The position numbers and the translations under genes were made by a program. The notes under the pieces are model-generated. The model worked only from the letters and a program-made list of their open reading frames with translations, had not been told where the DNA came from and did not search any database. This document shows, piece by piece, positions 18,628 through 62,107 of a DNA stretch of 64,000 nt. This DNA comes from Ectocarpus siliculosus (Eukaryota > Sar > Phaeophyceae > Ectocarpales > Ectocarpaceae). Each line of letters opens with the position of its first letter. The first letter of the stretch is position 1. The DNA lies in contig FN649738.1 in the NCBI GenBank assembly GCA_000310025.1, positions 1,908,981-1,972,980 on the forward strand, written 5' to 3'.

Positions 18628-20465
18628 CACGCTCGGATGTTGCAAAAAAAACTGAGGTGGTATTATACAGCAGTGCTCCTGCGAGAAAGTCAAGTGGGGG
18701 CAGTGAAGAGAGCTGGATGCGGCGTAGGTCGTCAGTGGGGGATTCAGCCCAGCCAGCCACTGCACTGGACTCTGTGCACGGCTGCGCTGAGGTAGGGGGG
18801 CGCCGTGGGTAATCGATTCAAACCCACACACGCATACGATTCTACGGCGCGAGAATCAAAGGTACCAAGCAAGTGGTACAACAAGTCAAAGGTGTTGCAT
18901 GGTATGCCTAGGTATATGATGGAAAAAAAGGTACATACTTCTGATACAATACCTTTTGATGACCACATGGCTATACAACGGCGCGAGAGAAGATTGCATG
19001 CGTGGAAGATACTTCATATCGGTGCAAGAGTACACACATGCATACATATATGCATGGTGCAGTGGGTGGTAGTGGGTGAGTGGGTCTGGCACAATCTGAT
19101 AACCTGCCTGCCACGAGCACATACCTGGTTTTCCACTCCCGGAAACAAGGCCCCGGGATTGTAGGTACTTTGTTCTGCCTGTGACCTGCGCTGTACAACA
19201 CACATACATACCTCTTTTGAGGAGCATCAACGAATTTCCGTGGTCATATGGATGTGTGTGTGTTCGTCCTATTTATGGCGACAGTCCCCACATTTTTCGT
19301 GGTGAGACGAGGTGTACTTGTACATTTTTCAGTGCATATAAAGTCTTAAGTAATCAATACAAGTCCCAAAAAATAGCCTTTCAGTCGCTTTGTCTCTATC
19401 GAGAGGGCTACATGTACACACCAGAGAGGAAACGAGAACCAGGCCTGTGTTTTAGGGCGTCTTGTACTAGAACCAATGTAAGTACGGTAAGAGAGTGTCC
19501 TCTAAAGTGCTCCGAGGTCTTGGTCGTTCTTGCTGTATGTACATACCTACGCCAGTGGAGACGTTTGCTTCTCCCGTGGATACGTCAACGCACTTTGGCA
19601 CGCACTAAAACTTTTAACCCTACAACAGGCCTCGAGGGCCATGTTCTTGAGTTCACTCACGCCCCGTAACCCTTGCCTCTTGTCGCGTCAGGTGTGCGGC
19701 ACGTGCTGGTCTCGCCGTAAATATTTGGGTCTCAGTCAACGGGTGCTACAGCACCGTGCGCAGTGGACAGGTCGCGGAAGGTTGCACTCTGGAAAACATT
19801 CTCTGAACAGCAGAGCAGCTCGATTGTTGACAAAAAACATCGAATCGCAAATTAACGTCTCGCTTCCAAACACTCGGGCGAGCTGCAGGACAGAGTTGAC
19901 TTCGTAGTTCAGCGGGTCCTGGTTGTAGCGTAGTTAGTTCATCAGTGGATCTACGCTCTATCGCTGTGGAGACGTCATGAGTGGCCATCAGCTAGCCGCG
20001 TACAGAACAACAAAAAACACTGGTTACAGAATATACACGATACCACTCCCACCTAGATAGAACGCGCACACAACCTAAATAAACGAAGTCATTTGGGTAC
20101 TTCCAAACACATGATGTACACGAGCCCGTCACCCTTCACCCTCAACACTATCCCCAGGCACAAGAGGTCAAACACGAAATAGTCGACATGGAACGGGACG
20201 AAATACGCCCACGAAGCGCATGAACGTTAAGGCACAAAGGCGGGAAAAAGGGGCAGCACTACTCTGTTCACAGATTTAGAGCAACCCCAAGGTATCGGCA
20301 TCCTCCAAGCCACAACTACACAATCACCAACGAAGAAGTTTTGCTGGTGTTCTCGACTCCTCACCCAACAAAAAAATCAGCACTCCTTGTCCGAGCAAGA
20401 GGATGCTCTGCCTGTGCAGCAACGAGAGTAGTGCTACGAAACACTTGCAGCCCTGCCGCGTCATG
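18628..20465. other. Intergenic, VPS52 promoter side and SYS1 3' side
   Basis: Lies between the VPS52 start codon and the SYS1 stop, both on the minus strand. I see no third gene. A weak box B-like GTGGGTTTGAATC is present on the minus strand near 18825, without a convincing box A. Confidence 0.5.
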
Positions 20466-24253: not shown

Positions 24254-27200
24254 CTAATGCCTTCGTTCGGAGCACGAGCGAAGGTGAGCAGCAGCTAAAA
24301 GTGCTGCCTGGTGTAATGTGATCTCGATCTTCCCTGCTCTGCGTTCGTGTGGCACAAACGTGTCCTCAAAGGCAGTTTGGAGCAATTCGTGGTCGCATGG
24401 AAACGCCGTAATGTTGGTGCCACATGCACAACCTGGACTGGTGCAATTGCTACATACAACAACAAATGACCCCCGTTTGTAGTGCGATTGGTTGTGGTTA
24501 TGCATATCTCAACAATAAAAACCGTGCCGATCTCTACCCAGTACCTGTCTGCACTAGTCTTAACACTTCGTTGGATGCGGTTTTTAGCTTTCCTCTAAGC
24601 CTCGGAGAATCAAAGATCGAATGGTGGGCCAAAAACCGGGTGTGAGATTGTTTCCGGTTTCAAGAGCAGGTCGCGACGTCCCAAAACTTAGCCTTTCTTT
24701 GCTCACGGGTAAACGAAGAAATGCTCGAACAACTCTCGCAATATTCATCCTACATACAAACTTCAGAGAGGATACAGTGTAGACCATTTACGTTGTACAA
24801 CACAGGGAGTCAACACTACAGGTTTGCTTGATGCCCATGATACAGAATCATCCTTCCACCTTCCGCGGGCGAAGCATGCTTGTCTAGAATACGCAAGGGA
24901 TCTACATGAGGCCACGCCCAACATAAACTTGTATCCCAAGCTGCTACCACACGCAACAGAAGCGATATGATAGACTAACGGCCGGAGTCCACGTCATGGG
25001 TACAGCTCTACAGGCGGTAGACGTTGCTCATGCGACGTATGGTTCCCAGTTGAGACTGCCTGGTGCCACCTGTTCAAAGAGCTCGAAAATATATCGTCGC
25101 ATGGGCAGTGAAAAGCTGTGTGCGACCAAAATTACGGCACCCGTCAAACCGCAAGGTGGGGGAGGAGGGGGGGGAGGGGGGGGGAAGGGGGGTGGGGGGT
25201 TCACGTCAAAACCTGGTCGGATTTCCGGTAAAGAATCGCGCTAATAGCTCTGAACGCTACAAGGTACTGTACCGTTCCAGCGCTGGTACAATTCTTCCAG
25301 ACTAACCACACGGCTGCACCGATAAACAGGGCAAGACTCCTGTAGAGTACCGACGGAGGGAGGCACAAACCTGTAGTCGGCGAGGAGCTGGTGCACCAGA
25401 AGGAACACCGGGAGACTGTTCGTGAAGGATTCTTTGAAAGCCTTGTCCTTGCGCATTCGGCTGAGTTTTCTCATCGCTTCCTTCCGCGATATGTGGCTGC
25501 TCAATTTTACAACTTGATCCAGGATGTCCGCGTCTCTTGTCTGTGCAGAACAGAGCGACAGCGAACCATACTCACGATGAGGAAATGCGGCGAGCGTCTT
25601 TGTGGCAAAGCTCGAGGACCGTTAAATAACCATCGAAGATGGCTGGACTGCTAACACAAAGGGGTTGATGTTTCCACTGCCTGGCCCGGTCGGTCTCAAG
25701 CATCGCATGTTGGCACTTCCATGCACTTTCGCATCATCATCATCACAATCATGTGTCGCTTGCGTCCACCCATCATTGCCAAGCTGGGAAGAAAATCTGA
25801 TTCTATTGCCGTTCGCTTGGCGCAGACTCTGTGACTCATGCATACTTACCCGCCCCAGGTCCTTTCGCAAATTGTCGATGATAGGATCGCCTGGTTGCTG
25901 GTCCAGGCCTCGCGTTAGCGACCCTTCAAACTCCCATGGTACGGGCTGCCGCGGGAGTACAAATAAGTGGACAAACACGATACTTGGGGAACCGGCTAGA
26001 TATGCATCCACGGCCGTGCACGCACAAAATTTGATGCAATCAGTCTACGCTGCCCAGCTGAAGCATACAAACTACCAAAATCGAAGAGGTGCATGGATGG
26101 CACACAGCAACAGAGGAACAGGAGGCTGGAATTTTTTCATGGCGATTGAGGACACAGGCTACCGTCAGAGACAGAGGCCTGTGCCGTAGCAGTATTCTCC
26201 CACTGCCAAGAGTGGCTAACTTCCTCTCGTGAGATGTAACTAGGAGAGAGGTATAGAAACAGTGACGAGCAAGGGACAGAGGGAGGAAAGTCGGCTCTCC
26301 GCCTCTACTCTAGGCAAGCGGCCAGAGAACATCGAAGAGAGATCCCAACGACGTGCTTCTTGTTACTCTCCCGATGGCAAGTTACCCCGATGGATCGTAT
26401 CTTCCAATGCTTTGTATCGTTGCACAAATGGTTGGTTATACTTCCGACAGGTGTCCTCCGCATCACCCCCTCTCTATGCGCCACAAGCCCATCTGTGCCA
26501 AAGATGTGCTTTTGGCGTCTAGAGACATGAGTGGCTAATGGAGACGCATGTATCGGTTGGTTATACTTCCGACAGGACACGATACCTGGAATAAAACCGT
26601 TGGGTCCTGCGGTAAGAACGCGCTCGTGCTGGGATCCCTCGCGCTTTCCCACCCCGCCGCCCTGATCGCCGCCCGTCCCCGTGCTGTGCGTGCCACCAAA
26701 CTTACCACGCAAAACAACGTCCTGTAATTTTAACGGAAAGGCTGCAACATTAGTACCATCTCACAATATTGACAACTACACCGAACATCTTCGCGACGAC
26801 AACAACAACAACCTGAGAAGTAAGTCCACAAATCTGGATTCGTCATAGAATGGGTACGTTTAGGAGCTGTTGGAAGCATCGTCAAGTGCTGCTGTTAAGT
26901 GGAAGAGCTTGGTCACTGCGAGCATCGCTATCGGGGGGTCTTCGGAAGCAGTCGTCGAAAGCAGTCCAAACGCTATCAGTATTCCAACTTCGTTTCCGTT
27001 CTCATGTGCACCACATACAAGCTCCTAGCAGGAACGCCTTCCGCGACTGCTGTGGCAGTCTTTGCCACCATGGCTCTAGGTAGGCGAAGTCTTACCCCCA
27101 CACAGACAAGTGCGATTCCGACGTGCACATTTTGAGCAGCATGCCAACCACATCGCCCCGAAGTTCCTCAAGGAGAGCTAGACCGAGAGGCCAGCTACTG

Positions 27201-30200
27201 ACGTGCGCCTGGATTGACGAAAGGGAACAAACCAGCACAGCGCATGTGTTGAAAATCACTTTTGTTTGTTAACAAGTACTGGAACATCTGAGGGCTACAC
27301 TATAACAGGACAGTGCAGCGAGTATAACCACAAAGTGCAACAGCAACATACATGGAGCGACCTTAACTAATGGTACGACGTTTTGGGATTTGGGGGAGCA
27401 GGCACGCCTACCCTATGTGTGAAATACTCTGTTCAACAATAAGGTTTTGTTCGAGTAGCGAGCTATTATAGCTCGGCGAAGACCATTTTCGAAATCATGG
27501 CTCCAACAAGACCTAGCGCAAGTGTAATATTCCAGATGCACTCCCATATCATCGGGATCTGAGGTACGCCCGATGGGGTTCGTTGCACAGGTGAACATAT
27601 GCAACGGCGTTCGAGCAGCACACTAAATATATGGATGGGGGTTCACAGAGCGAGGCACCAAAGAAGGGATTGGCAAAGTATGCGCTAAAGCACCACAGGA
27701 AAAAGACTAAACACCAAACTTCCACGTTACCCACACACGAATCTTCGGTCGCTCACCACTGCCCACAGTGCTCCCTTGCGGTCATCTGCCGCAGCGCCAG
27801 AGTTCCTCGCAATGTGGAGCAGATTGTTGAGATCGCCATGTTTCTGCAAAAGCTCGCAGCCTCTCTCTGTTTTCGCCAACTCGCCGTACAGGTGGGGTGG
27901 AAGCAAGATGCCCGCCGGCCTGCATTCAACATTGTTCAGGCAAAAACGATCAGCGGGGACTGCAACGCAAGCAAACCCATTAAGTACACAACGGGGTGCC
28001 CTTCGATGACTCACGGCAAAGAACTCTTGCGAAGTGACCACAGAAGGAAGAAAAGTTACCCACCCACAATACCACCTTCGCGATCACGAATAGTGTTCAC
28101 CCTAAGGAAGGGTAATTCAATCTATCGTTAGGGTCTTGTCGGAATTCACTCGACTCTTTGCACCATCTCAAACGCAATGTGCAACATAAAAAACAACACA
28201 ACATTCACGACAACTCTCATTGGTGTTGGCCAAAGGAGACAGAGCTCTCGTCCTTATCGACCAGAGATCATGCCCGGGAACATACTGTTTGCTCGGTATC
28301 CTCTAATTGGCACTGCACTGCCTTGCACAAACATGTCGGAAATGCGGTCCACTTACCCCATGTCCTTCAACGAAATCGTCATCTCGACCGCCTTGAGGTA
28401 CGTGACGCTCGAATTCTCAACAACCTGGACATTTGTGGCAAGTCAGCAAAACGGGTAGCTTTGAACGGTACACTTCATCACCCGCACGGAGGACCTCTTT
28501 ACACTTTCCGGACACAATGGAGCATTCACGCTTGGCAGGGTAGCGAATATCCACTCGCCTGCGTAGAAATTGTATCCTCTGACTGGGGTTGATTGGTGAA
28601 CACCCAACGCGCCGTCTCATTCGGCACGCGCACAACGCGCTCACGCCCACACGTTGCGGATCGTGCGCTTTCTTGTAGGGTTTCCCCGTCTTCGGCCTCG
28701 GCATCGCTCTTGCCGACCGGATCAGCCCTTGCTGCCGGCAAAAAAGCCTCTTGTTCGTCCCCGTCAAGGGCCTCGTCGTGCAAGGAGTTCGATAGCGGTG
28801 ACACAGTATGCATGCCTAGCCCAGACCGGCTGTCATCCTTGCCGTTGTCGGACCCAGGGTTGACAACAAGTGGGGATGGGGGCACCCTCTGGAAGCACAG
28901 AGCACGCGGGGACGTAGGAACACGCGGGGACGTAGGAACAAAGAGACAATGTAGCATCCGATGGAAGGTAGAGCCATGGGTACCACAACAACGCATAGCA
29001 AGAAGGCTGCGTCAGACAGAGACTGATTTGCGTGGTCAAACCTGATGAGGCCGACATGTCGACCAGAACAACTGGTGTTCCATGTCTGACGGATCTTCGG
29101 GCAGTTCACGCCCAGGTCCGAAGTCCTGCATTCCTTGCACGCCGCGATACATTGTGTTGGTTCCAAACGAGCTGTGATGATCGGCTCGGCCGTGCTGCGG
29201 TGACCACTGCGACCGCGGAGGTCGGCTCGAGCGGCTCCGTCCGAACGGTGCCGTCTGATGCATGCGGGATAGAGGGGAATCCAAACGTGTGATGGTGCAC
29301 AACGAGCACAGGGAAGCAAGGTCTGCCGCTGTGGGCTGCACATGACCACTATTCAGACCTCCGTCCTGAACTTCGATACTCCGTCGTCACGACTTGACTC
29401 AAACAAGGTAAACATGAACCGTTGAAAACAAAAGGCGAGCGACTTCCACTTGTGACACAGCAAAAGCAAGCAACGTTCAGACTCAATGCATGCGAAGCAG
29501 CACCGAAGTCCAAGAATAAGGACATGGTCCATGGGTGACATTCGAACATCAAACAACACCTACCCAAACACCAATACAATTGTATAAAAAATTGAAACAA
29601 AAATTTCAACAAGCGTACAACATATTGCAAACTGAATACAGCGTCAGACCGGATATCTATATTGTCATTGCCAGTTCCTTCTACAAATTCGACATCCAAA
29701 CGGACGAGACACGACCTCCAACGACGCACGTGCTTATCCATCAGCGAGGAGGTTGGACTCCATTGTACGTTCCCCCTGCGGTCCACAGCACAAGCGCCCA
29801 CACATAGCCGTGCATGAATGGTGAGGTGCGCCTCCAATGGATGACACGTTGGTTTACCGGCCGAATCCACCAAAATGCCACGGACCACCTGTGCAGGAAT
29901 CAAAGAGTGTTTTCATGAGCTAGATCACAACACTTGAGAACTCTTGCTTGTCGACTTTCTGTTGGCGCTCGTTCACTCCTGTCTTTTTTTGCCGTTTCCA
30001 TATCGTGAAGATGAACATTGGGTCCAACGAGTTTTGCTCACATCTGGGCGGCAACATCCGCGTGTGTGTGCCAACGACGATATTTTCAACGCTTGCCATA
30101 CCTACTTTGGTCCCAGCCCACGCTTACCATTTTAGTCGCGCCTGGAGCGCCCCTGGCGGTTGCTCCCACGCTTGGAGAGTCTTCCTTTGGTAGGGTGTCA

Positions 30201-33200
30201 ACAAACGTGTCCAACCTCAGCTGCAAGCCTGACGTGGCCGTCGAATCTGTTGACAGCATGACCTCAATATTCCATGGAAGGCTCATGAGCAGCTCTACTT
30301 CAACACCGCCATCTTGCGACCTGAAACAACAACAAAAAGTTGATGATGCTGACCGCCTTGGACAACAATCAACGAGCTCTCACCCTGTGTCAGCTTGTAA
30401 GCAAGAGAATGCTGTGTCCTGTAGGTGGTAAATTAGAAACGGAAACCCGTCAAACAAAGCTGCATGCCGGTAAACGCAAGGAGGGCTTGTGCCTTCGTGC
30501 CAGATCAACAATCATAATTCGCAAGTGTCGAGCAATGGACGCTTACATGTTGCTCATCCTGATTGGGATCGCCACGCCAGAGTCGCTGATGTCGTGTTCA
30601 TGCTTTGACATCGGCTCCATGCTCAGGTGTTCCTCCACATGCTCCACGTCGTTGACATGCGTCTATTGAAAATAACAGGTGTTAGCCTCGCTGCACGGAT
30701 CGCTTCGTGGTGTTTGCTACAGACAAGCCCAGCCGATCTACACACAAAAGTGTGTGGCAGGGCGGGTTCTCCACACAACACCGGTGGATAATGTTCTCAC
30801 CTTCCACTTCATGTCGACGCTGTCGGCGTACGTCGTTGTACGGCCGCTGTCTTTCCACTCCCGTACCATTTGTTCCACCCATCCGTGTTCCTCGAGATAC
30901 ACGATACCCTCAGGTATTGACAAGAAACGCATGAGCAGATCGTTTGCTCCTGGTTTGTGGATCAAGTCCGGCTTGGCCAATACCTGTCTCGCAAAAAAAC
31001 AGATTGGTGTCCGCGGACAATGTTGAGGGCACGAAGCGATTTGGTGGAACCACTGCTATGACATGATGGAGAAACAACGTCAAATCAAATTGATTCCCTG
31101 TACCCAAGAAGTCTAGCGTACCACAACTTGCGGTGAAGGAAAGGAAAGCATCAACTCACAAGAGTTCGCAGGCAGCGCTCGTCTTGCGTGGCCTCCTCCA
31201 GCACGGAAAGAGCAGCCCGAGCAACGGCTGGGTCGTCGCCATGTACCTGAGCCACCAGCATCTCAATGCACCACTCTTCCGAACGAGCGTAGTCCGAGGG
31301 CGTGGTGCTTCCGCCGTGAGCTGTCAGTACAGGATCTCTCAGCCGACGGTTCGCCGTGCTGGAATTTCTCAACGCGATTCGCATTCTGTTGATTGAAAAC
31401 AGCCGAAGGTGGCTGAAATGCACACGACCGAAGACAGAAGGGTGGGGACGCACCTTTCGATCGTCGTCTGCTCTGAGAGTTGAACAAAAACACGGAACTC
31501 GAAACAAATGTACTTCTGGCGAGCAGAAAATACTCCCCGCAAAGCTGCCACTACTGCTGTACCTGGAGCCTGTCGTCATCCATGATTCTAGCTGATCCCG
31601 AGGAAAGCATTTTTCGGAGGCGAGGTCGATCTTCGCCAAGATAAGGCGGCTCATGTAGTCCAGCTCCGGCTGTTGATAATACGTACAGGGAAAATACGGA
31701 GGTTCATAAGCTCGTACAACACGAGTCGCTCCTTCCGTACAACTACAATATGAGATCCTCAGAGCAGGTAGTCGACTTTCTATACGCAGATAGAAATCCG
31801 CCGGTCCTTGGATGTAGACGGCGAGGCACATTCGGTGCGCCGCTGATCTAGAGATGCGTATTTGGCGGGGGGAAGGAAGATAGCTGACCTGGCTGCCCAT
31901 CCTAGCGAGATGATCCCAGAGACCCGTATCTGAAAGGAGTTGTCGCCCAGCTTCAGTTCCGGCGGCGACGCTGAACAATAGCGTGATGTAGCCTCCACTT
32001 AGATTCCGCTGGCATGAGTCCATATCGAAAACCTTCACGTCGTGACCGCAGTGACAAGATGTGGTCGGGGGGGAGGGCATCATCAAAGCTGGAAAGGGCG
32101 GAAAGACAACGAGAACTAAAGGTGCAAGGTCATCGCGATATTACACAAGAGCCACGGCGTTTGTCACGTCAAGATACTACCCATCGGAGACAACGGGGAC
32201 CACAACCATAGCCACCGCCCACACTCATCTCCCAATCACAACGACATAGTTGTGTTTCTGCCACCAGCACCAGCAAGAAGTGAGGACTGTATACATACTT
32301 CACCTTCGACGCGGCTGCAAACCTGCCCGATCCACTCCCGCTACATCTTCTTGTGACCAACGCCTGAAGCTCCTTGACCGTTTCCTGACAGCCACGGGGG
32401 AACGTTGCTCAGGGGATGGTATCCGCGCGCTTGGTTTACTGCAAACCGCGTTAAAAATTTAGCGGGATGAAACCAGCCAGGTAGCAACGCGTGCTACATT
32501 CCGACCACACTACAACAGGGTTCTGCCTTCAGCCGGGGTGAACTGGACAAGATATATGCACAGATATGTTGCGAGTCACATTAGATCACCTGCAGAACAC
32601 CTCCTCTAGCGTCTGTCTGTAGGAAGTGGAGCCCCTCTTGCTGCTGAAGCAAAAGAGAGTACAGCCGTCCAGCACAGGCGATATGGCGAATGTGGTCTGG
32701 ATCCCACCGCATATTGTGAAGTCCCCCACCTCCTCCCCTACAGTACGACAACAACAAACACACGTATCACGAAGCCGAGCCGAAGGTGGGGTCGAGACCA
32801 GCTATTCTGCGGACGGGAAAATGCTAATCCGGCCTGACTGCGTCGACGAAGCACAAAGGCACATAAGGTACGCCGGCACTCAACAATCGGAATAGCTGCA
32901 AAAACAAAACAAAACCCTGTGTCGGTTAGCTTTCAGCTCGCACATTGCCGTGTCCAAGTCAGCAGTAGACGCGCATTCACGGAGTCGAAGTAAACGAAAG
33001 ACAACAAGAACTACACGTGCAAGCCAAATTACCGTTCGGTTGAAGTGCCGCTTGCGCCTACAAAGCGGTAGAATCCCGACACGCGCTTGATCCATTTCGT
33101 GCGTAACGCGTCAACCAACCGAGGTGAGTGGGGGAGAATATCCTGCACGATGTCATCCACAACATCCCAGTCCCACTTCGTCCAGTCCTTCGTAGCCAAA

Positions 33201-36200
33201 ACCTGAAAATAGTAGATGGGATCACCAAGAGAGGGCATGGTGCAGAGAAGCAGGCGTGGGCACGTAAGCAGCAAAAGTTTGTCCACCGAAAGGGAAAATG
33301 CCATTCGCAATGCGACGGGTGCGTCTACGACAGCACGTAACGAAAACAATAGGTAGCACGCACTCGTGCGATACAAATGGGCACCGTTATATCCCACCTG
33401 GCTAGCGGTCGAAAGGGTATTGCGGTACCTTGCTTTTGTTCATCTGGGCTTCCATGACACTCTTCTCGACGCTTGACTCGATGCTGACTCGGAGCTCTTT
33501 CCGCATCTGTTCCAAGGTCCCTGTGGGCTCCCAGCCTTGGCTCTGATGCGTATCCATACCGCTGTCGATCGCTGATTCTGCCTCGTAAACCTGAAAATTC
33601 ACACCACACATAACTTGGCTCATGTATGCATAGATGTGAACAAAATGTAGAGAAGCAAGCGATAGCTGCGTGCACGGTTTTGGAACACCGTGTGTGCGCC
33701 GCAAATATACGATTGGCTAAGACGTAGCGTACCTTCTCCATAAGGCCCCCAATGGTGACCATCGGCTGCTCCGTTTGGCCCTGCTGCCCAAAATATGCGG
33801 ATACAGGGCCAACAGCTCCGGCGCCTAGGGCTCCATGCAACAACCGAACCAAGTCACTCGCCCTGTTTCACAACGCGGTGATTGCTTCAAGGTAATCGAC
33901 AAAACATGTGCACCTAGAACAAATTGTGGGTGGCACAAATCTATAGTTCTTTAGCCATCTGGCGTGCGAAAATACAAGCCTTCGGACACGCCTCGCCGTG
34001 GGCGGGCACAATTTCAAATGAGCCTTGCAATCGGCCTCGCACATAACCCTTGACGCCGGAGCGGAAACAACTAAGAGCGGACTCATCCATGACCGATTGC
34101 AGGAACAAATCGGCGTAAAAACTAGTGCCGTCCACGGTGTCATCGGTGGCACCATAGCTCGAAAAACAAAGGCAACATCGCGAAGAGCGAAACTTACAGA
34201 AATATAGCATCCATACCAAACGAGATTGCAATTCACGAACTGGCAGGGCAGTGGCTGATGTATGCATGACGTTCTGCCATACACCGGAAATGTACGCAAC
34301 AGGTCTCACCTTGACGCCCGACTACGTGTTAAGTGACAAGATCGCACTCCGCCTTCCGCAATTCCCATGCACCCTGTTAGAGACTCTGCCGCGATCTCAA
34401 CCAGGCCTGGCATCGAAAGAAGTCGCGTGCATTGATTCTGCGATAGAAGCATGGCACACAAGTGTAGCACATCCACCAGTCTGCCGACGACAATTGATCG
34501 CATGGCAGAGGCAGAAAAGGGGCGGCGTTATGAGATATGAGAAAATGTCTCACATCTAGCAAAGATAGTACGATGACGCCCTGATTTCGTGATTTGTCGC
34601 TCGGCAGGATATTCCGTCCCGATTCCATGAAAAGTACCCACTATTTATTATATAATCGTTGATGAACGGCAGCGCGCTGAGCCTACAACAATACGCTGCC
34701 TTCCGTCCGTGAACAACTCATCGCAAACAACACCAAGTGCAAAATGACAACAGAAAACGTGCTGCTGTAGACGCTTACAGTGTTGCAGCCTTGGTTCGCA
34801 GCTTCTCCGATCCAGCCGAAATACTCAGCGTAGTGAGGCTAGGAATAAGGCCGCAGTGAACGAACGCTGCGCACAACAAGGTCGCATAGCTCAGCAACAG
34901 GTTGTGTGGCTCCGAGCCTCTCCTTGTTCGCAACCCAGATCCCGCGCTCTTGTGTGGTAGTGTTGCCGACCTCCCTGCCAAAGACGTGAATGAAAGACAA
35001 GTGGCACCATCGCCCGTGTACACGGTTCACAGCCAGAACGGTGATATACGACTTGATAGAGGCTGTTAAGGGCCGACCTCATTGCCTGGGCGACGCTTTT
35101 GTTTCGAAGACCGGTTCACCAAAACGCCCGCACGAGACACCTCACCTTGTCTTACCTGGCGGGCCTGACTATAAATAGGCGTACGAAAGGAGTCTTCTGC
35201 TGTCTGGCAACGCTACAATGAGTGACCAATTCCAAGGTTGGCGGAGCTTCCGTGCCCCGCAACAGCACCTCCCAAAATAACGAACAGAGGAACAGTGAGG
35301 AATCGTTTGACCACCACCGCTAATTTACCTGCAAGAGCAGCAGGAGAGTAGCAGCAGCAGAGTGCTGCTGAGAGAGGAGAGGGAGGTCCCTACATGTTGA
35401 TATTTTGTCGATGACGTGTTGATTGTGGTGTGCGCGTCGAAAAAAACAACTTTCTGTACTACGGTTGCGTTTTGGCCCATTTTCTTGGTTCGGGCACGTG
35501 TTCATGCACTACGTGCAAGAACACAAAAATAACGTGAGGGGTGTCACAGAACTGACAAAACAACAGAAGAGTCACCCTGAAGTTCTCTGCCTATTGTCTG
35601 GTTGCCTGTTATGCGCTCTGCCGGTGCTGCTGGCTGCTCTCGGAAGAGCACGTGTGCGAAAAGATGCTCGTGCGGTACATGACACATCGGAAAAAGCGTA
35701 CAGATGCCACGCCGAAAACCAACAGCAGTAGGCTACGCCATGTACGTCTTACCCATCAACTACCAAGAGGCTGCGTCTTTTCCTATATGTGTGGTCTTGC
35801 CGAGCGTGCTGTGAGTGAGCGTCTGAGAGCGGAGTATAATCGAGACTTGCGAAACCCAGGAACACAGTAAGGCTAACCGCAAAGAACGAATGAAAGGCAA
35901 CACAACAAAGGGTCGACCACCAACGCACACAGTTGAGTATCCACCGGCGCGAGTTTCGAGCGAGAGCTACACTGTCTTCATAAGGGTGCCTTCTGAATTC
36001 TGCAGTCCTCAGCGTTTGTTGCTCTTGGGTTTGTGCAAAACGTACATTCAAATCTTGATGGCACATGCACTCTCTTTGTCGACTATTCCGTCAATTATAC
36101 CTGAGAATGGGGCGGACAGCTTGCTTTCTCGCCCCGGCTCGGCTGATGAAGTTGTCCTGTCCATGCCCACGAGAGGATCGAAGATGTCCACGATGGTCTC

Positions 36201-39200
36201 CAAAATACTCTGAGTAAGACGAGAAAGAAACGGGAGATGCCAGAGGGTTGCAGGTTGTCACGAGAGTCACGGGAGAGCCACCTCTGCGACAACACTATAC
36301 ACAGCACCTGTTTACAACGTGTGCTGCACCACATTGCAACACGGACCAGACCTAAGAAAAATGTCGGGCGCCTTTTTTGGATTTCCCGATTTCCAGTTTA
36401 TCGTATTTTCTTACGTCAACGCGCCAGCACCAAACGAGGTATCACGTCTTACTTTCGTGTTGCGATGTCATCGCAAAAGCACCCCCTCGATCAAGCGCCT
36501 CACATCTTGTAACCCTGCGTCGTCGCTGAATGACGCCGATGGGTCCCGCAAAAGCCGCATCAGCGTCACGAGCCCGCGGGAATCCGACGCCAAGAGGTGC
36601 ACGCCTGCCCAAGTGCGCATTGCTATGACCAAGGCCTTACGTGTAGCCTGAAAACGGGTAGAGGTAAACGGTTATCGTGTTTTACCGTTGCGTCCCAATA
36701 GTCTGGAATGGCTAATGAGCTACTGTATGCGGATGACTCGACGGATAAACAGATGGGCTCTCAACCATCCACAAAGACCCAAAGCTCACCTGCCACCTAT
36801 GAGCTCTCTCGGGTCCGGGAGGGGCGTCAAGATCCGTGAACCCGGTCAGCAGCTGGTGAATTTCTAGGTGAGGCCGCACGTATCGCCTCGTGGCAGGGTC
36901 CTCGATGATAGACGTCAGAGTCGTCACCAGCGGCTCCGTCAGGTCCTGCATACAGCATCGCACACAACTAACATCAGTAGTTCACGAACCCGGGGGGTAT
37001 GGCGAAACGCTAGCCGGTCAGCGCTCTCTGGTGCGGCTGTTCCCGATCCCACGCAGCGATTAAAACAACACGGTGTACGCTCGAACCTACCACATCACAT
37101 AGTAAAACACACTTGGGCCTTGTGCATACCCCACCTGGTTTGCTGGATCGATGGCAGCTGCCAACAGCACGCGGAAGCCATTGGCATGCGCAACCACGCG
37201 AGGATCAGCGACAGCCAACTCCTGCAAGGTTTCCAGGCACACCTGTAGACCCGACAGATCAAGAACATCTATCAGAGGGCTCGGCTGGCACGGTCACACT
37301 ACACAGCAACGCCGGACTGTACGCAAAAAACTTGGCGGATGCTCTCAGCCATACACACAGAGGCAGCAAACGCCGTTGACGCCTGACTTGCCCTTCGGAA
37401 GTTGTCCTCTTTGTGACCGGAGACCGCCACAACTGTGCGCACGACTTCACGAGGTAGCCGCGAAGAGTCGACCGCCATTATCTGCTTCACCAGCTTGAGC
37501 GCCTGTTTGGACGTATTCGACAAGTTAGAACAGCAGTGCTGCGACAATATTTTCTTTCGCCAACTACATGAGGAGTATAGGCTATGTTTGCGCAAATCAA
37601 CGAATGGTCAACAGAAAGACGACACGCCGGAAGTAGCACAGCCGGAGTCCCACTATGCACTACCATCCCATGCACTTTCTGCTAGCATGAGCTTGACCAA
37701 GTCAGCGCTACGGGTTAGACGTTGTGGAGATACTTTTTTCTTTCACTGATCGGCATGCGTCCATTCTCCCCTCCATCCCGTTGGATTGAATGACTGCATC
37801 TGTCCCAGCCGGTGGTCCCACTCATGCAGCAGGAGGATAAAGTGGTGTTCTCCGCTCCAGGTCTGGTATTGGGTGTGTCGACTGCTAACACCGTCTACTA
37901 CAAGTATGCCGTAAAGAAAGGGTCATAGGGTCGAGGTTTTCTGCAGTTGTGCCATGCTCGAATTAGGGTTAGATACTGATGAAAGATTTTGTCCTAATAG
38001 TACCACGTGTTTTCCGCAACAGCATGAACAAACATGGGCGGCGTTAACAGGTCACCTACCTGCATCCGTTCCCACAGCTCGTACTGATGAAAGGTTTTGT
38101 CCTATTAGTACCCCGTTTTTTCCGCAACAGCATGAACAAACATGGGCGGCGTTAACAGGTCACCTACCTGCATCCGTTCCCACAGCTCGTACTGCTCCCG
38201 CGCTAAGGCGAGGGCGATGAAGAGGCCGAAGCGCTGTCTTCGGAGGAGCTCGGCATCCTCACTCGTGCGAACCTAGGCGTTTTTCAATGATCCGATTGTC
38301 AGGTGCTGCCATCTACTGTAACTGTGTGTGTGACCGCACCCATCGGGGAGTTCGAACCTATCGGCAACCTGTCTACACCAGGCACACAACACATACCACG
38401 CAAACCTACAACCTAGTTTGATCCCAGCACTAGCCGGCAACGAGCGCTCAAGCGAAACAAAAAGCCCGGCAACAGCACGGACATGGCAACAACCAATGGG
38501 GCGGCAAGGGGGCAGCAGACGGACGAGACGGCGAAGGAAGAAAGCAAACGAGAAGAGGCGTGGTATGGTACTACAGCTAGTACTAGCAGAGGATAAAAAA
38601 AAACGACAGCAGAAAACCAGCCAACAGAAGCTGGAATACAAACTGCCATATTCTCGTCAGGGAACCACATCGGTTTTCGTCTGGCACACGCCATAACCAC
38701 ACTCGCTCCTCGAATTCTGCCGACTCTGCATTAAGGTGCATGGCGCTTGTGTGTGTGCCTTGGGCCGGGTCCTGCACAAGTAGAACTACTGTATTCTACC
38801 GTTGGAGCCGCGGTACTAATCTGTGTCGCACTCATAGGAGTAATGGCACCGGATGCCTGTATACAGCAGTGCCGTATGCATAGCACCTCTATGGCCGTCG
38901 GGGGTAGGTATCAGGATCTTCAACTACAGTGTACTAACAGCATTCCTATGGGAGTGCCTTGCAAGAGCAGTGAAACTACGGGAGTGTTGAATCCACCGGA
39001 GTACAATCGCACCGGGTGCGATTATCTTTTCAACATAAAAATTACAGCAGTTATGTAAGCTGAGGGACCCGGTGTGATACCTATACGCGTATCACGCATG
39101 ATAACGGGGAGGCCATCACCTTGTTGCCGTTACGTTTCAGCCTTGGAACATTTCGAATGGTATGTATGTTTGTAGCACGAGTTGACCCACCAGGTATCGC

Positions 39201-39917
39201 AAAGACCGAAACATTGCAGCCCTGAGGTTGCTATCCACTCTCAACATCCCTCCTCGAAAGCTCCGTATGAGCTCCAGCAATAGGTCGCCGCGCGGCTGTG
39301 GCGCCGTGTTCGCTTCCTGCTGAACAGCTTCGTCGATCTTCACCACCTGCTCGTGCGCCGGCTCTTCCCCGGCAAGTATCTCCTTCTCTTCTTGGATCGA
39401 CCCAACCTTCTCTTCTCGAATTGGCTCCGCTTGCTGTTCACCCATGCTATCATCTTGGGGCATTTCCCCTCCTGGCTGGTGGGTGGTCGTGACTGCTGTG
39501 GTCGGGGAAGCTACTGCAGGGTTTCGCTCTACACCTGGTGGGGGTTCTTCTGGGTCCGGAGCCAGTGTGACGCCCGTTGCTAACGGGTCTTCACTCCCCG
39601 TCACGGCAGCAACATGCTTGAGCCCCTTCGAAACCGGCACAAGGCACGCAAGCAAGAATAGTAGCGGCAAGGGATGGGGGTAATAAGAAATTGAGAGGCC
39701 GTGGGAGAGAGAGCGTACCACACCGGCACGCACCAGGAGGAGGAGGTGTGATTTGAAATGCGCAGCCCAGTCCACACTCAACTTGGAAGGATACTCCTTA
39801 ATCGTATTGAACGTGGACCATCCTCACCTTGGCCAAACGTACGAGATGGTCGGCAACAGCTCGTTGGTCAAGATCATCTCGCCCCAACGCATCGATAAGT
39901 CTGGAAGCGTCCACCAT
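24254..39917 (-). CDS. RICTOR: RICTOR, defining subunit of TOR complex 2 (about 30 exons, about 1,560 aa)
   Basis: HEAT/ARM scaffold of TORC2. Exons: 39917-39828, 39625-39191, 38272-38168, 37502-37392, 37242-37135, 36945-36790, 36647-36504, 36209-36101, 34974-34779, 34480-34310, 34157-33990 (tentative), 33862-33733, 33590-33429, 33202-33033, 32737-32590, 32384-32304, 32032-31889, 31669-31563, 31385-31160, 30983-30801, 30662-30547, 30320-30128, 28888-28604, 28424-28357, 27919-27757, 27208-27096, 26721-26586, 25945-25850, 25540-25351, 24432-24254; sum 4,683 nt, phases chain. Landmarks: LRAAMFRSLRYL, ALKLVKQIMAVD, KWDWDVVDDI..TKWIKRVSGFYR, WCIEMLVAQVHGDDP, LMRFLSIPEGIVYLEEHGW, PHLYGELAKTERGCELL, SSWPLGLALLEE, LSVWG|TLFCVVSLVARTARG, and the C-terminal ILDQVVKLSSHIS block. 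Human RICTOR is 1,708 aa. Intron 4 uses a GC donor (AGG|GCAAGT). An acidic 95-codon exon (28888-28604) has no counterpart I know. Possible extra exons: 29888-29858 and about 29328-29130. The start MVDASRLIDAL is the only Met of its exon. Confidence 0.92.
25156..25200. repeat. G-rich run in the last RICTOR intron
   Basis: About 45 nt made almost only of G, with single A or T interruptions on the plus strand and at least four runs of three or more G, so compatible with a G-quadruplex. On the transcribed RICTOR strand it is a C-rich tract in the intron 25350-24433. Confidence 0.7.
26430..26576. repeat. Exact 22 bp direct repeats 125 bp apart in a RICTOR intron
   Basis: The 22-mer starting GGTTGGTTATACTTCC is identical at 26430-26451 and 26555-26576. 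The right copy ends 10 bp from the 5' splice site after exon 26721-26586. It may mark a small insertion or a local duplication. Confidence 0.85.
37974..38189. repeat. 108 bp tandem duplication across a RICTOR exon-intron border
   Basis: 37974-38081 and 38082-38189 are two copies of a 108 bp unit with only a few differences (for example GAAAGATTTTGTCCTAATAG versus GAAAGGTTTTGTCCTATTAG). On the minus strand each copy contains the end of exon 3 (codons for ELWERMQ) plus the 5' splice site GTAGGTGACC, so a second intact donor lies 108 bp into intron 3. Confidence 0.92.
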
Positions 39918-56867: not shown

Positions 56868-59800
56868 ATGAAGGCAGCAGCGATGATTGCGCTCGCCATG
56901 TGCGGAGCTACGGGAACGGCCGCGTTCCAGATCCCGGTTTTCACTCGTCCAGCAACGGGCGCATCAAGCCGCAGCGCGCTCTCGATGGCGCAGCCCACGG
57001 TCGGGACTGGAACGGGCAAGAGTCTCGAGTACAATCCGGAGAAGTATGGCGACGAGAAGAACGCGGGAAACTACCGGAAGCTGTCCGAAGCGCTAGAGGT
57101 GTGGAAAAGTTTGTGTGTAACATGCACGTGGTATGTAACACCTCGCGGGGTGACGTTTGGCGTTTGCATCTTTGACCCGTCCGTCGTCGCCATCAGTTCC
57201 GCAGCCGTGCTGAGAACGAAAATATGTGTGGGCCTGCTCCTGGTGTGAGGTGCGGTGGTTCTGCAGGCTCTTTGATACCCCCGAAAAACATCGCACTGCA
57301 CGCCATCTCCTCAAATCAACTGCAAGTTCGAACAGGACTACAACCTGGATCTCGTTTTGCGTACGAAAGCATGACGATCAGTGTGCGTACGCAGGAAAGT
57401 CGATTCACTCGTCGGATGTATGGCGCAAGTGTGAGTACACCTAACCCTAAGGTCGCACCCTCTCCTAGACAGGCATTCGTAGCTCGATTGCGCCACAATC
57501 GAGAGGGCAGGGCTGCCGAAAAGAACGGTTTTGGAAAGATGTCGATCTCGTCGATAGCAGACCCATCGGCCGGATTTCGCACTGTCTTGGTTGGGGAACA
57601 TAGACTATAAATAGAGCGAAGCTAAAGGGCACGGCGGGTTGCATCACTCGCACAATATGGCGCGGTTCGTTGTACTGATTTCCAGGGAGCTGTTGGTGTG
57701 GAAGAACCGCGGTAGTTCCAGATGAAAGTAGATGTTCTGTTGAATTTCAACGTTTTGTTGCGCTTTCTTACAGCAAGGTGATATACTTAGGTACGACGGC
57801 GGTACGTACGAGTAGCTCTCGATGTTGTCCTCTCGATAGAGCGAAGTCGCATCCAAACTTGGTGCCCGCGCAATTTGCCAACGACGAGTAGCATGGGGGA
57901 GACAGAGAGTTGGTTTGATATCTTCTGTTGGACTTCTCTGATAAGACAAGGATTGGTTTGCTCTCTCCAGGCTGCGGATGTGGAGGCTCGCTTGGCCGAG
58001 GAGGCGGCAGACCAGAGGGCGAGGGCGGGCGAGATCCGCCGAGAAGCGAGGATGGCCAAGATTAAGTTCATGGAGGACATGCCCGACAACACCGAGGCGA
58101 GGTCATGGTTTTCACAGCAGTTGGGAGTTGATGCACGATTCGAGGATGCGAAAGTACCTGCCGCTGTCGGAAAGTGGCTTGTTTGCCCGTTTAGATGGTG
58201 GTGAGGAAAATCAGGAAAATCCTTGTCAATGAACTGAAGCCCATGAGACATTTAGGAGTGCCAGCAGCGCAGAGGAATCTGTTGCGGAATACAGCAGTCA
58301 CGCCCGCTTTACATCGCGTGCGTGCGAGTTGCATGTTGGACGACATAGGCAGGCCAAAAATGCGGAATTGATAACCCACTATATATTATTCCCCGCCGGC
58401 GCTGCAGGTGGGTACCGTTGAAGAGTTCATGTTCAAGGAGGGCGTACGGGACATCCTCGAGAAGCTGGACTCGGACCTTGTGGGGTTGATTCCCGTCAAG
58501 CTGAGAGTGCGCCAAATCGCCGCCCTGCTGGTGCTTGACAAAGTGAGATGGTGTTTGCTGCAGACTCTTGTACTCCATGGTGGCGTCCCTCTTGGGTTCA
58601 TTTGATGATGCTACCGTCGAGGCACCCCCGATGCTATCAGCTTCTCGCACCCGACAGCCAACAACTGGATGTACTGACGGATGCGGGGACTACTCGAGTT
58701 TGTTGCGCCTGGCAACTGCTAACTTACATGTTGGAAGTGCGAGCACCCTCCAGGTTGTTGTTTGCTAGTTGTGCTTGTGAGTCTGCGGCATACTACAGCA
58801 GTAGAACAGTGTCACTCACTGTAGCCGTTTGGTGTGTCCATTCGAATTCGTCGGCGTTCAGAAGCCCAGTCCGCATTACAAATAGTAAAAATGTTCCAAA
58901 GAATCCCGCCGACGGTAGATCCGTGCGCGGTCGAGAACTGCGGTCAGCATCTACCGATTATTGTATTGCTGACACTGGTGGCGTGGAGCCCAAGATGAAC
59001 CAGCCTACGTTGTCAACACGTCCAGCGGACGGACACTTCTGAGCCTCCTGTAGCTCCGCATCGTTGCAACTAATGCTGGCGATTCGCTCTGCTCCCTGCC
59101 TCGTTTTCTCTATTCGTCTTAGATGCGCGGCAAGCTGGGCTTCGACACTTCCGTGCCTTCCCTCCACATGTGCTTCACGGGCGCCCCCGGCACGGGTAAG
59201 ACCACCGTTGCTCTTCGCATGGGGCAAATCTTGCAGCGTATGGGCTACTGCCGACAGGGACACGTCGTGGTGGCAACGAGGGACGACCTGGTGGGCCAGT
59301 ACGTTGGCCACACCGCCCCCAAGACCAAGGTCCGTGCCGATATCTTGCCAAGTGGACTGCTTATTGCCATTTGTGGTTTGGTTGTCCCCCCGTCCGTCCT
59401 GTCTCCAGCGGTTTCGTGTATTTGCAAGTGCTCCACCTCGATGACATCGTGCCAGGTGCAAAATACATTAAATGCCTTAAAATCTCGATGACAAGCCAGT
59501 TTTTCTGAAACCGTTCTCACTAATTCCCCTTCCTGCAGGAAATGATCAAGAAGGCATTCGGAGGTATTCTGCTGGTCGACGAGGCGTACTACCTGTACAA
59601 CGCGGCGAACGACAAGGACTACGGTCAGGAGTCGATCGAGATCCTCCTTAACGTCATGGAGGAGCAGAAGGACGACCTCATCGTCACTCTTGCCGGGTGC
59701 GCTCATCGCCTTTTTGGGATTGCGCGAGATTCTGAGTATGGCAAAGTTGATGCAGGCATATGGCCAGACCCCGGCTCTTTCAGCACATGAATCCTGCGTA

Positions 59801-62107
59801 GCCGTTTGTGTAGCATGCCACCTCAGAGAGCATGCGATGCACATGGTGTTAGGGTGTATTGTTGGTGTTTCAAACGTGTCCCTTGGCCTTGATTGATATT
59901 GCAGATACAAGGACCGCATGGACCGCTTCTTCTCCTACATCCCGGGTATGTCGAGCCGTATCGGAAACCACATCGACTTCCCCAACTACTTGGTCGACGA
60001 GCTGGTAGAGATCGCGATGGTGATGGCCAGGGACCTCCAGTACTTCATGGACGACGCGTAAGTGTTCTGTTTCTTGCATGTTCGCTCTTGTCTTCAGCGA
60101 AGTATCATCCGTGTCAAGTCGCCTCTACGGTGCCTATTACTACTTCTCGTGGCAGTGGACGGCAACTCAGTTGGGCCTTGAGTCACTAGTGTGTTTCGTA
60201 GGTCTTTTTCGACATTCCTCGGAACAAAATGAACAAGTGCGTCGTCACGCAAATCCATATTGACCTATTATAGACGAACTTCCTGCGGATTGATTGATGG
60301 TGCACGGGCTTTCAGCATTTGCAATCTTGATGCTTGATTGCGTGTAGGGCTGTTTTTTTGCGGTTCTCCGCCTCTGGACCTCGCCTCGCGGCGAGACTTG
60401 CATCTACCGATAGCTCTGAGTTGCGAGGGCCCTCCCGCTGTGCCGCGCACTCTCGTAGCGGACATCGCGCAGCGCTATGGAGGGCAGAAGGTCTCTTCTC
60501 CGAGATCTACGACGCCTCGCCCATCAGTCCAGGCCACATTACAATACATTGCTAAGAGACTGACGTGGTATTTTTTATTGCGCTGGCTACAGTACACATG
60601 TTCACACCCTTGCCACACGCGACAACCAAGCAGCCAAGTCTCCGCATGCCCAACTGCTGTGGTGCGTTGCCCTCTCGATCCCGACGACAAGCGGGGTGGG
60701 TTGCGCCTAGTGTAGTACGCAGAGCAGTCTGGAAACTACACCTCAATACAGCGTAGTGCTTGTTACGACTGGGTGACTGGGTCGAACATGGTGGTCTCCA
60801 TGTCAGAATGCCACTTCTCAAACCCGCAGACACGTGACATCGCGCAGTACGCCGCGAAGCGCCCTTGTATTTTTTGCTTCTCCTCAATTTTTCCTCGGCA
60901 CGTAGCTGAACTCTCGTTGCTGTCGGAATTTATTCGCCCGCGTTCGCACACAGGGCCCTCGCGGTGTTCAAGGAATACATCGAGACCCGCATGAAGTTCC
61001 CTTTCTTCTCCAACGCGCGAACTGTGAGTGCTGAGCACGCTGAGAGGTGTAGGGTTGCACGCCTTGAGTTATATCTGTGGTGAAGGTTTACCCATGGAGA
61101 AAAGCTAAGTTGTTTGACGTAGTTTGCCGTTCATGGCATGTCGATTTCGAACCTTGCAGCGCGCGTCCTCTTAAAGTACCAACTAACGCGTTCGTGTTGT
61201 GTGCGCCGGTTCCTTCCACAGGTCCGTAACGCCATGGACCGTGCTCGTATGAACTCTGCGATCCGCGTTTTCAACAACGCTGTAGTGTCTGAAGGCGACG
61301 GAGGCATGGTTTCCGAGAAGGTGAGGTAACCCGTGTGGAGGTCTTACCTGCACGTGTCGAACGTGCCCTGTGTGGTAATGATTCACCTGGCGCCCAAGAC
61401 GCCTGGTCGTCCTAGCTTTATCTACCGTTAGGGGTATACATATTCTTGCAGCAGATCAACCCCCGTTGATGGACAATCTGTACAACGTATGCATAGGGAT
61501 TGATTGCTCCACGGTTTCACGCTGATGTAAGAACGTTAAATATGCGAGCACGCAAACAAAACATAAAATTCATGCTACAGCCTTTCAAAGAAGGTTGATG
61601 TGCCGCTGCCCAAGTACGATAAACATAATCCGCGGAAGTACTCTTTCGCGGTTCAGATCCCGTTTGTACACGTGCGCGGTTGGGGTGAGACCTGTAGCGT
61701 AAGGCAAGTGCTTTCGCAAGTTGCAATGCCAAATGATGACGGGCTTGACTTGGGTGTGTTCGGCTGGCTTGTGTTGTTTTAGATTTGGCTTCGTACGAAC
61801 CACTGCAGAGGCTGCCTTAGATTATGTAGCGCAAAAGATTTTGACATTTACTAGTGAAGAGAGACGCACAAAGGGGCGCTCACCCCCTTTCTGAATTTCC
61901 TCGTCCTTCTTCTTGGCGGTTGCTCGATCTGCGCTTTTTATGGTGCGTCGGCAAGCGTGCTAAATGTCTCGAACCCCCCGCCGTGCCGTGTGTGACGCTC
62001 TCCTTCTCTAGGACTTGGCTGTGATCTGCGACGCGGATTTCCAAGTTCTACTTGACGAGCTCTTGGCGTACGAGGCCGTGGGCAAGCTCGACGCTATCGT
62101 TGCCTAA
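56868..62107 (+). CDS. cbbX: CbbX, plastid-targeted red-type rubisco activase (9 exons, about 443 aa)
   Basis: AAA+ ATPase that remodels inhibited red-type (form ID) rubisco in the plastid stroma. Exons: 56868-57098, 57971-58153, 58408-58542, 59123-59329, 59539-59696, 59905-60057, 60954-61023, 61222-61320, 62012-62107; sum 1,332 nt. N-terminus: signal peptide [18 protein letters not shown], then [10 protein letters not shown], the Phe at the cleavage site typical of secondary red plastids, then a Ser/Ala/Arg transit peptide. Core: [18 protein letters not shown], Walker A GAPGTGKT, the pore-loop region [16 protein letters not shown], Walker [40 protein letters not shown] and [18 protein letters not shown]. 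The 3' end of exon 2 is uncertain: the chosen donor AAA|GTACCT keeps phase 0 but adds about 19 residues (RSWFSQQ...) not expected between MPDNTEA and VGTVEEF. The 361 bp divergent promoter is shared with the zinc-finger gene. Confidence 0.96.

What the first reader, a model, noticed from the sequence alone, without database searches (positions are those of the whole stretch)
24254..39917. Intact RICTOR (TORC2) gene in a genome that also encodes plastid CbbX
Seen: about 30 phase-consistent exons covering the RICTOR N-terminal ARM repeats, middle domain, V domain (SSWPLGLALLEE...LSVWGTLFCVVSLVARTARG) and conserved C-terminal block. Established: land plants and green algae lack RICTOR and use TORC1 only. 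A photosynthetic organism with TORC2, 17 kb from a plastid carbon-fixation gene, implies that the TORC2 arm of TOR signalling survived plastid acquisition in this lineage.
Basis: partly seen in the sequence, partly recalled or inferred. Interest (0 to 1): 0.75.

Follow-up and report, generated by a model that had tools for sequence, protein, structure and literature searches.

The report
RICTOR gene in a photosynthetic alga
This is a complete, ordinary-looking gene for RICTOR, a scaffold of the growth-control complex TORC2, in an alga that also makes a plastid carbon-fixation helper; land plants, green and red algae lack it, but its presence in brown algae has already been published.

Summary
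The minus strand of 25,028-39,917 carries an intact 31-exon gene for a 1,621-residue protein. It passes the Pfam cut-offs for RICTOR_N, RICTOR_M, RasGEF_N_2 and RICTOR_V; its best solved relatives are RICTOR and TSC11. On the other strand, 17 kb away, lies an intron-containing, hence nuclear, CbbX gene with a plastid-type leader; linkage makes contamination unlikely. The same genome encodes LST8, RAPTOR, an AGC kinase with an FRGFSF motif, and a divergent SIN1 candidate with a CRIM domain but no PH domain found. The TOR kinase was not found in six searches, although the two kinase-domain queries reached ATM, ATR and more distant relatives. The held assembly has N stretches, so this does not show absence.

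The modest addition is a probable divergent SIN1. Most likely it is the ordinary TORC2 scaffold.

The parts
25028..39917 (-). RICTOR gene, ATG to stop; 31 coding exons, 1,621 aa
   Evidence: gene model with all splice phases; Pfam; PDB RICTOR/TSC11
39828..39917 (-). RICTOR exon 1 (start codon)
39191..39625 (-). RICTOR exon 2; acidic N-terminal extension and start of RICTOR_N
34373..39625 (-). exons 2-10 carrying RICTOR_N (aa 150-497): 39625-39191, 38272-38168, 37502-37392, 37242-37135, 36945-36790, 36647-36504, 36209-36101, 34974-34779, 34480-34373
   Evidence: PF14664 223.6 bits; unspliced matches at 37147-37245 and 37389-37508
32590..33862 (-). exons 11-14 (33862-33733, 33590-33429, 33202-33033, 32737-32590), linker between RICTOR_N and RICTOR_M
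   Evidence: aa 599-663 aligned to RICTOR below significance
31160..32384 (-). exons 15-18 (32384-32304, 32032-31889, 31669-31563, 31412-31160): RICTOR_M (aa 749-847) and start of RasGEF_N_2
   Evidence: PF14666 40.2 bits, PF14663 85.8 bits
30547..30983 (-). exons 19-20 (30983-30801, 30662-30547): rest of RasGEF_N_2 (aa 880-984 in all)
28357..30320 (-). exons 21-25 (30320-30128, 29888-29730, 29335-29042, 28888-28559, 28424-28357): insertion before the V domain; exons 22-25 have no Pfam match at E<=1; intron 24 is GC-AG
26586..27919 (-). exons 26-28 (27919-27757, 27208-27096, 26721-26586): RICTOR_V (aa 1413-1484)
   Evidence: PF14668 69.9 bits
25028..25945 (-). exons 29-31 (25945-25850, 25540-25371, 25115-25028): C-terminal block, stop codon
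   Evidence: aligned to residues 1591-1656 of RICTOR chain 9zbk_C, 5.3 bits on its own
56868..61329 (+). nuclear CbbX gene (Rubisco-activase AAA+), 8 predicted exons at exon penalty -10: 56868-57098, 57971-58180, 58408-58542, 59123-59329, 59539-59696, 59905-60057, 60954-61023, 61222-61329 (12 and 16 exons at lower penalties)
   Evidence: model; TIGR02880 399.3 bits; PDB CbbX E=8.7e-93

Best explanation
The gene is the single-copy orthologue of RICTOR (fungal Avo3/Tsc11/Ste20), inherited by the host cell lineage and kept after a red-type plastid was acquired. Its product most likely scaffolds TORC2: the N-terminal ARM/HEAT part and the M/RasGEF_N_2/V parts hold SIN1 and TOR together, the C-terminal block shields the rapamycin-binding face of TOR, SIN1's CRIM domain presents substrates, and TOR phosphorylates the hydrophobic motif of an AGC kinase. 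Shown here: gene, domains, orthology, co-occurrence with LST8, RAPTOR, a SIN1 candidate and an AGC kinase with an FRGFSF motif. Inferred from yeast and mammals: assembly, substrate and function. Not found: the TOR kinase gene in the held letters of this assembly.
For: Intact 31-exon frame; four RICTOR Pfam families over cut-off in the order N-M-RasGEF_N_2-V; 7 of 7 PDB sequences matched at E<=0.001 are RICTOR (6) or TSC11 (1); the only 2 RICTOR_N matches in the genome are in this gene. SIN1 candidate: CRIM over cut-off (31.8 bits against 27.2; 31.7 bits in the spliced model); 8 of 9 PDB sequences at E<=10 are SIN1/MAPKAP1, though none is significant by itself (best E 0.12). LST8: three collinear exon matches of 38-56% identity on C3, gene model. 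Raptor_N 34.4 bits against 27. AGC kinase: Pkinase_C 26.8 bits against 20.9, E 0.0018, FRGFSF read in the open frame. GC at third codon positions is 0.64 against 0.50 in introns. Published presence of RICTOR in Ectocarpus and Phaeophyceae.
Against: TOR kinase not found by FRB, mTOR_dom, two kinase-domain queries and two codon patterns. SIN1 PH domain not found. The CRIM match covers about half of the profile (positions 78-131 of 139). No transcript evidence is available. A stretch of RICTOR_N is missing from the model at intron 8. Exon joining was partly guided by my recollection of human RICTOR, so splice sites are predictions. The gene-finder model of the AGC kinase put an intron over the FRGFSF motif; the motif is read from the open frame that Pfam matched.
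Confidence: 0.9

Rival explanations
1. A decayed or unexpressed RICTOR relic: the frame is intact by chance or recent inactivation, and TORC2 is no longer used.
For: TOR kinase not detected in the assembly; SIN1 is divergent and without a found PH domain; no transcript data.
Against: 31 exons with 30 consistent GT/GC-AG junctions and no stop over 1,621 codons; partner genes SIN1-like, RAPTOR, LST8 present.
Confidence: 0.05
2. RICTOR is made but serves outside a canonical TORC2, with a lineage-specific partner in place of SIN1 or TOR.
For: SIN1 candidate matches only part of the CRIM domain and TOR was not found; the protein has a long insertion of no known Pfam family before its V domain.
Against: SIN1-like, LST8 and RAPTOR genes are present; [quoted passage not shown] 3 of 16 loci taken from this genome contain N, so a gap can explain a missing gene.
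Confidence: 0.04
3. Contamination: the RICTOR gene belongs to another organism in the sample.
Against: RICTOR and the plastid-type CbbX are 17 kb apart in one window of contig C13 with even GC (0.488-0.548 in 4-kb windows) and both are intron-rich.
Confidence: 0.01

Closest known systems
RICTOR, mTORC2 subunit (PDB 9zbk_C, 6zwm_E; human, species recalled)
   Same: Same domain order plus C-terminal block; E about 3e-56.
   Different: In the human protein the long disordered region follows the V domain (recalled); here a long insertion precedes it (aa about 1,084-1,366) and the region after V is short. No RICTOR_phospho family among the matches at E<=0.1.
TSC11/Avo3, TORC2 subunit (PDB 9rsq_C; yeast, species recalled)
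   Same: N-terminal region homologous, E=1.2e-28.
   Different: Scores lower than the six RICTOR sequences (102.5 against 189-194 bits).
RICTOR of Ectocarpus siliculosus and other Phaeophyceae (PMC9664231, PMC12467227)
   Different: No sequence of these was available to compare; whether this genome is one of the surveyed species is unknown.
CbbX, Rubisco activase of red-type plastids and proteobacteria (PDB 3zuh, 3syk)
   Same: AAA+ core, E=8.7e-93 to solved CbbX.
   Different: Nuclear, intron-containing, N-terminal leader; scores 399.3 bits, under the equivalog cut-off of 459.25.

Membership tests
RICTOR | RICTOR_N domain (PF14664) | tested here: met
   223.6 bits against cut-off 28.5
RICTOR | RICTOR_M domain (PF14666) | tested here: met
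   40.2 bits against 27
RICTOR | RasGEF_N_2 (PF14663) | tested here: met
   85.8 bits against 27
RICTOR | RICTOR_V (PF14668) | tested here: met
   69.9 bits against 27
RICTOR | conserved C-terminal block next to the FRB of TOR | tested here: inconclusive
   aligned to RICTOR residues 1591-1656 but only 5.3 bits on its own; no Pfam RICTOR model matches it alone
TORC2 | SIN1 with CRIM domain | tested here: met
   CRIM over cut-off at C18:1152116-1152256 (31.8 bits; the unspliced match runs past a predicted donor into one TGA) and in the spliced model; covers about half of the profile
TORC2 | SIN1 PH domain | tested here: inconclusive
   no match; the control genomes did not ring either, so absence is not shown
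TORC2 | LST8 | tested here: met
   C3:271149-272896, three collinear matches to human LST8, 38-56% identity; model; Pfam itself shows only WD40-type matches
TORC2 | TOR kinase | tested here: inconclusive
   not found in six searches; N stretches in the held assembly
TORC2 | physical assembly and AGC-kinase phosphorylation | not testable with these tools
   only a candidate substrate with FRGFSF motif was read
CbbX | CbbX-type AAA+ ATPase (TIGR02880) | tested here: inconclusive
   best of 4 NCBIfam matches, 399.3 bits, but under the equivalog cut-off 459.25; nearest solved structures are CbbX
CbbX | plastid location | not testable with these tools
   leader with hydrophobic stretch and GTAAFQIP; reading it as an ASAFAP-type signal is recalled, no localisation data

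The most novel reading that the evidence does not exclude
A working TORC2 in a photosynthetic alga with a pared-down SIN1: CRIM is kept for substrate choice but the membrane-binding PH domain is lost, so that TORC2 there is recruited differently from the animal and fungal complex.
Probability: 0.2. Interest if true: 0.45.

Novelty: new member of a known kind. Interest (0 to 1): 0.25.

Why it matters
Plants, green algae and red algae run on TORC1 alone in the published surveys, so algae that keep RICTOR show that photosynthesis does not by itself make TORC2 dispensable. Because the surveyed red algae lack RICTOR, the gene most likely comes from the host and not from the plastid donor. That pattern is already published for brown algae. 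The new, small contribution is a probable SIN1 in such a genome, which makes a canonical TORC2 more credible there and gives a concrete candidate to test.

Tried and rejected
Automatic gene model at a low exon penalty: over-predicted short exons (59 exons), replaced by the hand-checked 31-exon model; the same program with higher penalties was used for the other genes, and its exon numbers change with the penalty. Codon scores trained on the RICTOR model are circular for RICTOR itself and are not used as evidence; only GC3 against intron GC is.

Missing RICTOR_N piece: I read the three frames of intron 8 for an in-phase exon and saw none; left as uncertain.

TOR kinase: FRB and mTOR_dom gave nothing. 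The first kinase query gave 6 matches at E<=0.001, the second 15 at E<=10. Of these 15, 13 lie in 8 loci that I fetched: ATM-like in L008 (PDB comparison) and in L007 (94.7% DNA identity to L008); ATR in L011; DNA-PKcs in L013; TRRAP in L016; and, by eye only, PI3K-type in L012 and L015 and PI4K-type in L014. The other 2 (C23:215800 and C28:708979) were not examined. None of the 13 is TOR. Codon patterns for two TOR signatures (one mismatch allowed) gave 0 matches each, with 0 in the reversed controls; an intron inside a signature would hide it.

Species: not identified. Brown alga is the likeliest reading (189-Mb genome, introns, CbbX, RICTOR) but no call tests it; no collection of named eukaryote genomes was on hand.

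Full report
What was checked. The finding places a RICTOR gene at 24,254-39,917. The whole-genome scan with Pfam RICTOR_N, made without splicing, gives two matches at E<=0.001 in the 189-Mb assembly, 28 bits each, both flagged over the curated cut-off with their neighbours in the frame, and both in this window on the minus strand (37,147-37,245 and 37,389-37,508). I read the minus strand and joined exons by frame, splice signals and resemblance to RICTOR as I recall it. The result is 31 exons from the ATG at 39,917 to a stop ending at 25,028, 30 introns of 134-1,126 nt (28 GT-AG, 2 GC-AG), one stop codon, 1,621 residues.

Identity. hmmscan gives four Pfam families at E<=0.1, all of RICTOR: RICTOR_N 5.3e-66, RasGEF_N_2 3.2e-24, RICTOR_V 2.2e-19, RICTOR_M 3.1e-10, each over its cut-off and in the order N-M-RasGEF_N_2-V. 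All 7 PDB sequences matched at E<=0.001 are RICTOR (6) or TSC11 (1). The alignment to the best covers the N-terminal ARM repeats (aa 149-517), the RasGEF_N_2 region (881-976), the V region (1369-1489) and, at only 5.3 bits, the C-terminal block (1541-1609). The insertion before the V domain has no Pfam match at E<=1.

Weak points of the model. Exon 8 joins exon 9 in phase across 1,126 nt, but a stretch of the aligned RICTOR has no counterpart there; either the protein is shorter or an exon was missed. The acceptor of exon 16 and the junction of exons 22/23 are the least certain. GC at third codon positions is 0.64 and intron GC 0.50.

CbbX. A plus-strand gene at 56,868-61,329 is predicted to have 8 exons at the exon penalty that I prefer (12 and 16 at lower penalties); the first 421 residues were searched. 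Its best NCBIfam model is CbbX at 399.3 bits, under the equivalog cut-off of 459.25, the next being SpoVK at 241.3; its best solved relatives are CbbX, E=8.7e-93. It has introns, so it is nuclear; the leader [25 protein letters not shown] fits a stramenopile plastid presequence (motif recalled, not tested). ATG to ATG the genes are 16.95 kb apart, on one contig, so RICTOR is not a contaminant unless the contig is chimeric. GC is even across the window, 0.488-0.548 in 4-kb windows.

Partners in the same genome. SIN1: one CRIM match over cut-off, on C18; in a spliced model the CRIM match is 31.7 bits against 27.2, over profile positions 78-131 of 139, and 8 of 9 PDB sequences at E<=10 are SIN1/MAPKAP1, the best at E=0.12. 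The aligned part is the acidic loop and the end of CRIM (ADDDWDPDLDFPGLDSS). SIN1_PH was not found. LST8: three collinear exon matches on C3, 38-56% identical to human LST8, a fourth match on C11 being another place; gene model; Pfam shows WD40-type matches only among the 25 of 39 families listed. RAPTOR: Raptor_N 34.4 bits on C20. An AGC kinase on C2 matches Pkinase_C (26.8 bits, E 0.0018) and its open frame reads FRGFSF at the hydrophobic-motif position, the kind of site that TORC2 and TORC1 phosphorylate (recalled); the automatic model spliced this piece out.

TOR. Neither FRB nor mTOR_dom matched; no control genome rang for either family. Kinase-domain queries found other members of the superfamily instead: two ATM-like copies, ATR, DNA-PKcs, TRRAP, PI3K- and PI4K-type kinases; 2 of the 15 matches were not examined. 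Two TOR codon patterns gave none. One search was sensitive enough to list a TRRAP exon at 17.7 bits, so the TOR kinase domain is probably not in the letters held. Three of 16 loci taken from G000 contain N, 1,230-2,088 of them each, and the tool states that gaps and withheld stretches exist, so I read this as a gap and not a loss. It is the main result against a full TORC2 from this genome alone.

Literature. PMC9664231 (2022; passages read) states that Rictor is present in Ectocarpus siliculosus and absent from most microalgae. PMC12467227 (2025; passages read) states that TORC2 is absent from all Archaeplastida sampled, from diatoms and pelagophytes, and kept in Phaeophyceae, Parmales and Nannochloropsis; it equates RICTOR with TORC2, with or without SIN1. 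PMC5745459 (2017; passages read) puts TORC2 in four of five eukaryote clades. In the passages I saw, SIN1 in Phaeophyceae is not stated either way; figures and supplements were not available. A search for SIN1, RICTOR and Phaeophyceae found 2 papers in the held library, of which only PMC12467227 concerns evolution by its title.

Mechanism. By orthology the protein scaffolds TORC2. Shown: sequence, domains, co-occurring partners. Inferred: binding to TOR and SIN1, rapamycin shielding, AGC-kinase phosphorylation, and host (not red-algal) descent of the gene, since red algae lack it in the published survey.

Verdict. Interest is low to moderate; the divergent SIN1 candidate is the part worth following.

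Noticed in passing
window 37974-38189: A 108-nt tandem duplication (96% identical) covers the end of RICTOR exon 3 with its splice donor; the extra copy could act as a 42-nt in-frame cassette exon (38101-38060).
   Followed up: partly
window 37391 and 28558 (minus strand): Two GC-AG introns with strong consensus (AGG|gcaagt, CAG|gcgagt) among 30 introns of RICTOR.
   Followed up: no
L007 and L008 (G000 C22:178500-186500 and 213500-221500): Two ATM-like kinase genes 35 kb apart in the same direction, 94.7% identical over about 4 kb of DNA: a recent duplication of ATM, or an assembly duplicate.
   Followed up: partly
G000, whole assembly: No TOR kinase found although ATM, ATR, DNA-PKcs, TRRAP, RAPTOR, RICTOR and LST8 are there; probably a gap.
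   Followed up: partly
window about 10193-17720, minus strand: Pieces of a VPS52-like gene downstream of RICTOR: of 3 pieces tested (10193-10390, 17571-17720, 18484-18633) 1 matches Vps52_C over its cut-off (33.1 bits), 1 matches Vps52_CC below it, 1 matches nothing.
   Followed up: partly
window 49450-50661, plus strand: Two exons of electron transfer flavoprotein alpha subunit.
   Followed up: partly
window 52087-53508, minus strand: A 474-codon open stretch with a CCCH zinc finger and glycine-rich start, function unknown.
   Followed up: no
window 11867-11965; also in the gene models of L007 and L012: A similar peptide (about KAGTEHAGFSPDQALTSPSAKRREVFGESH) appears here and in two other places of the genome: probably a dispersed repeat element.
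   Followed up: no
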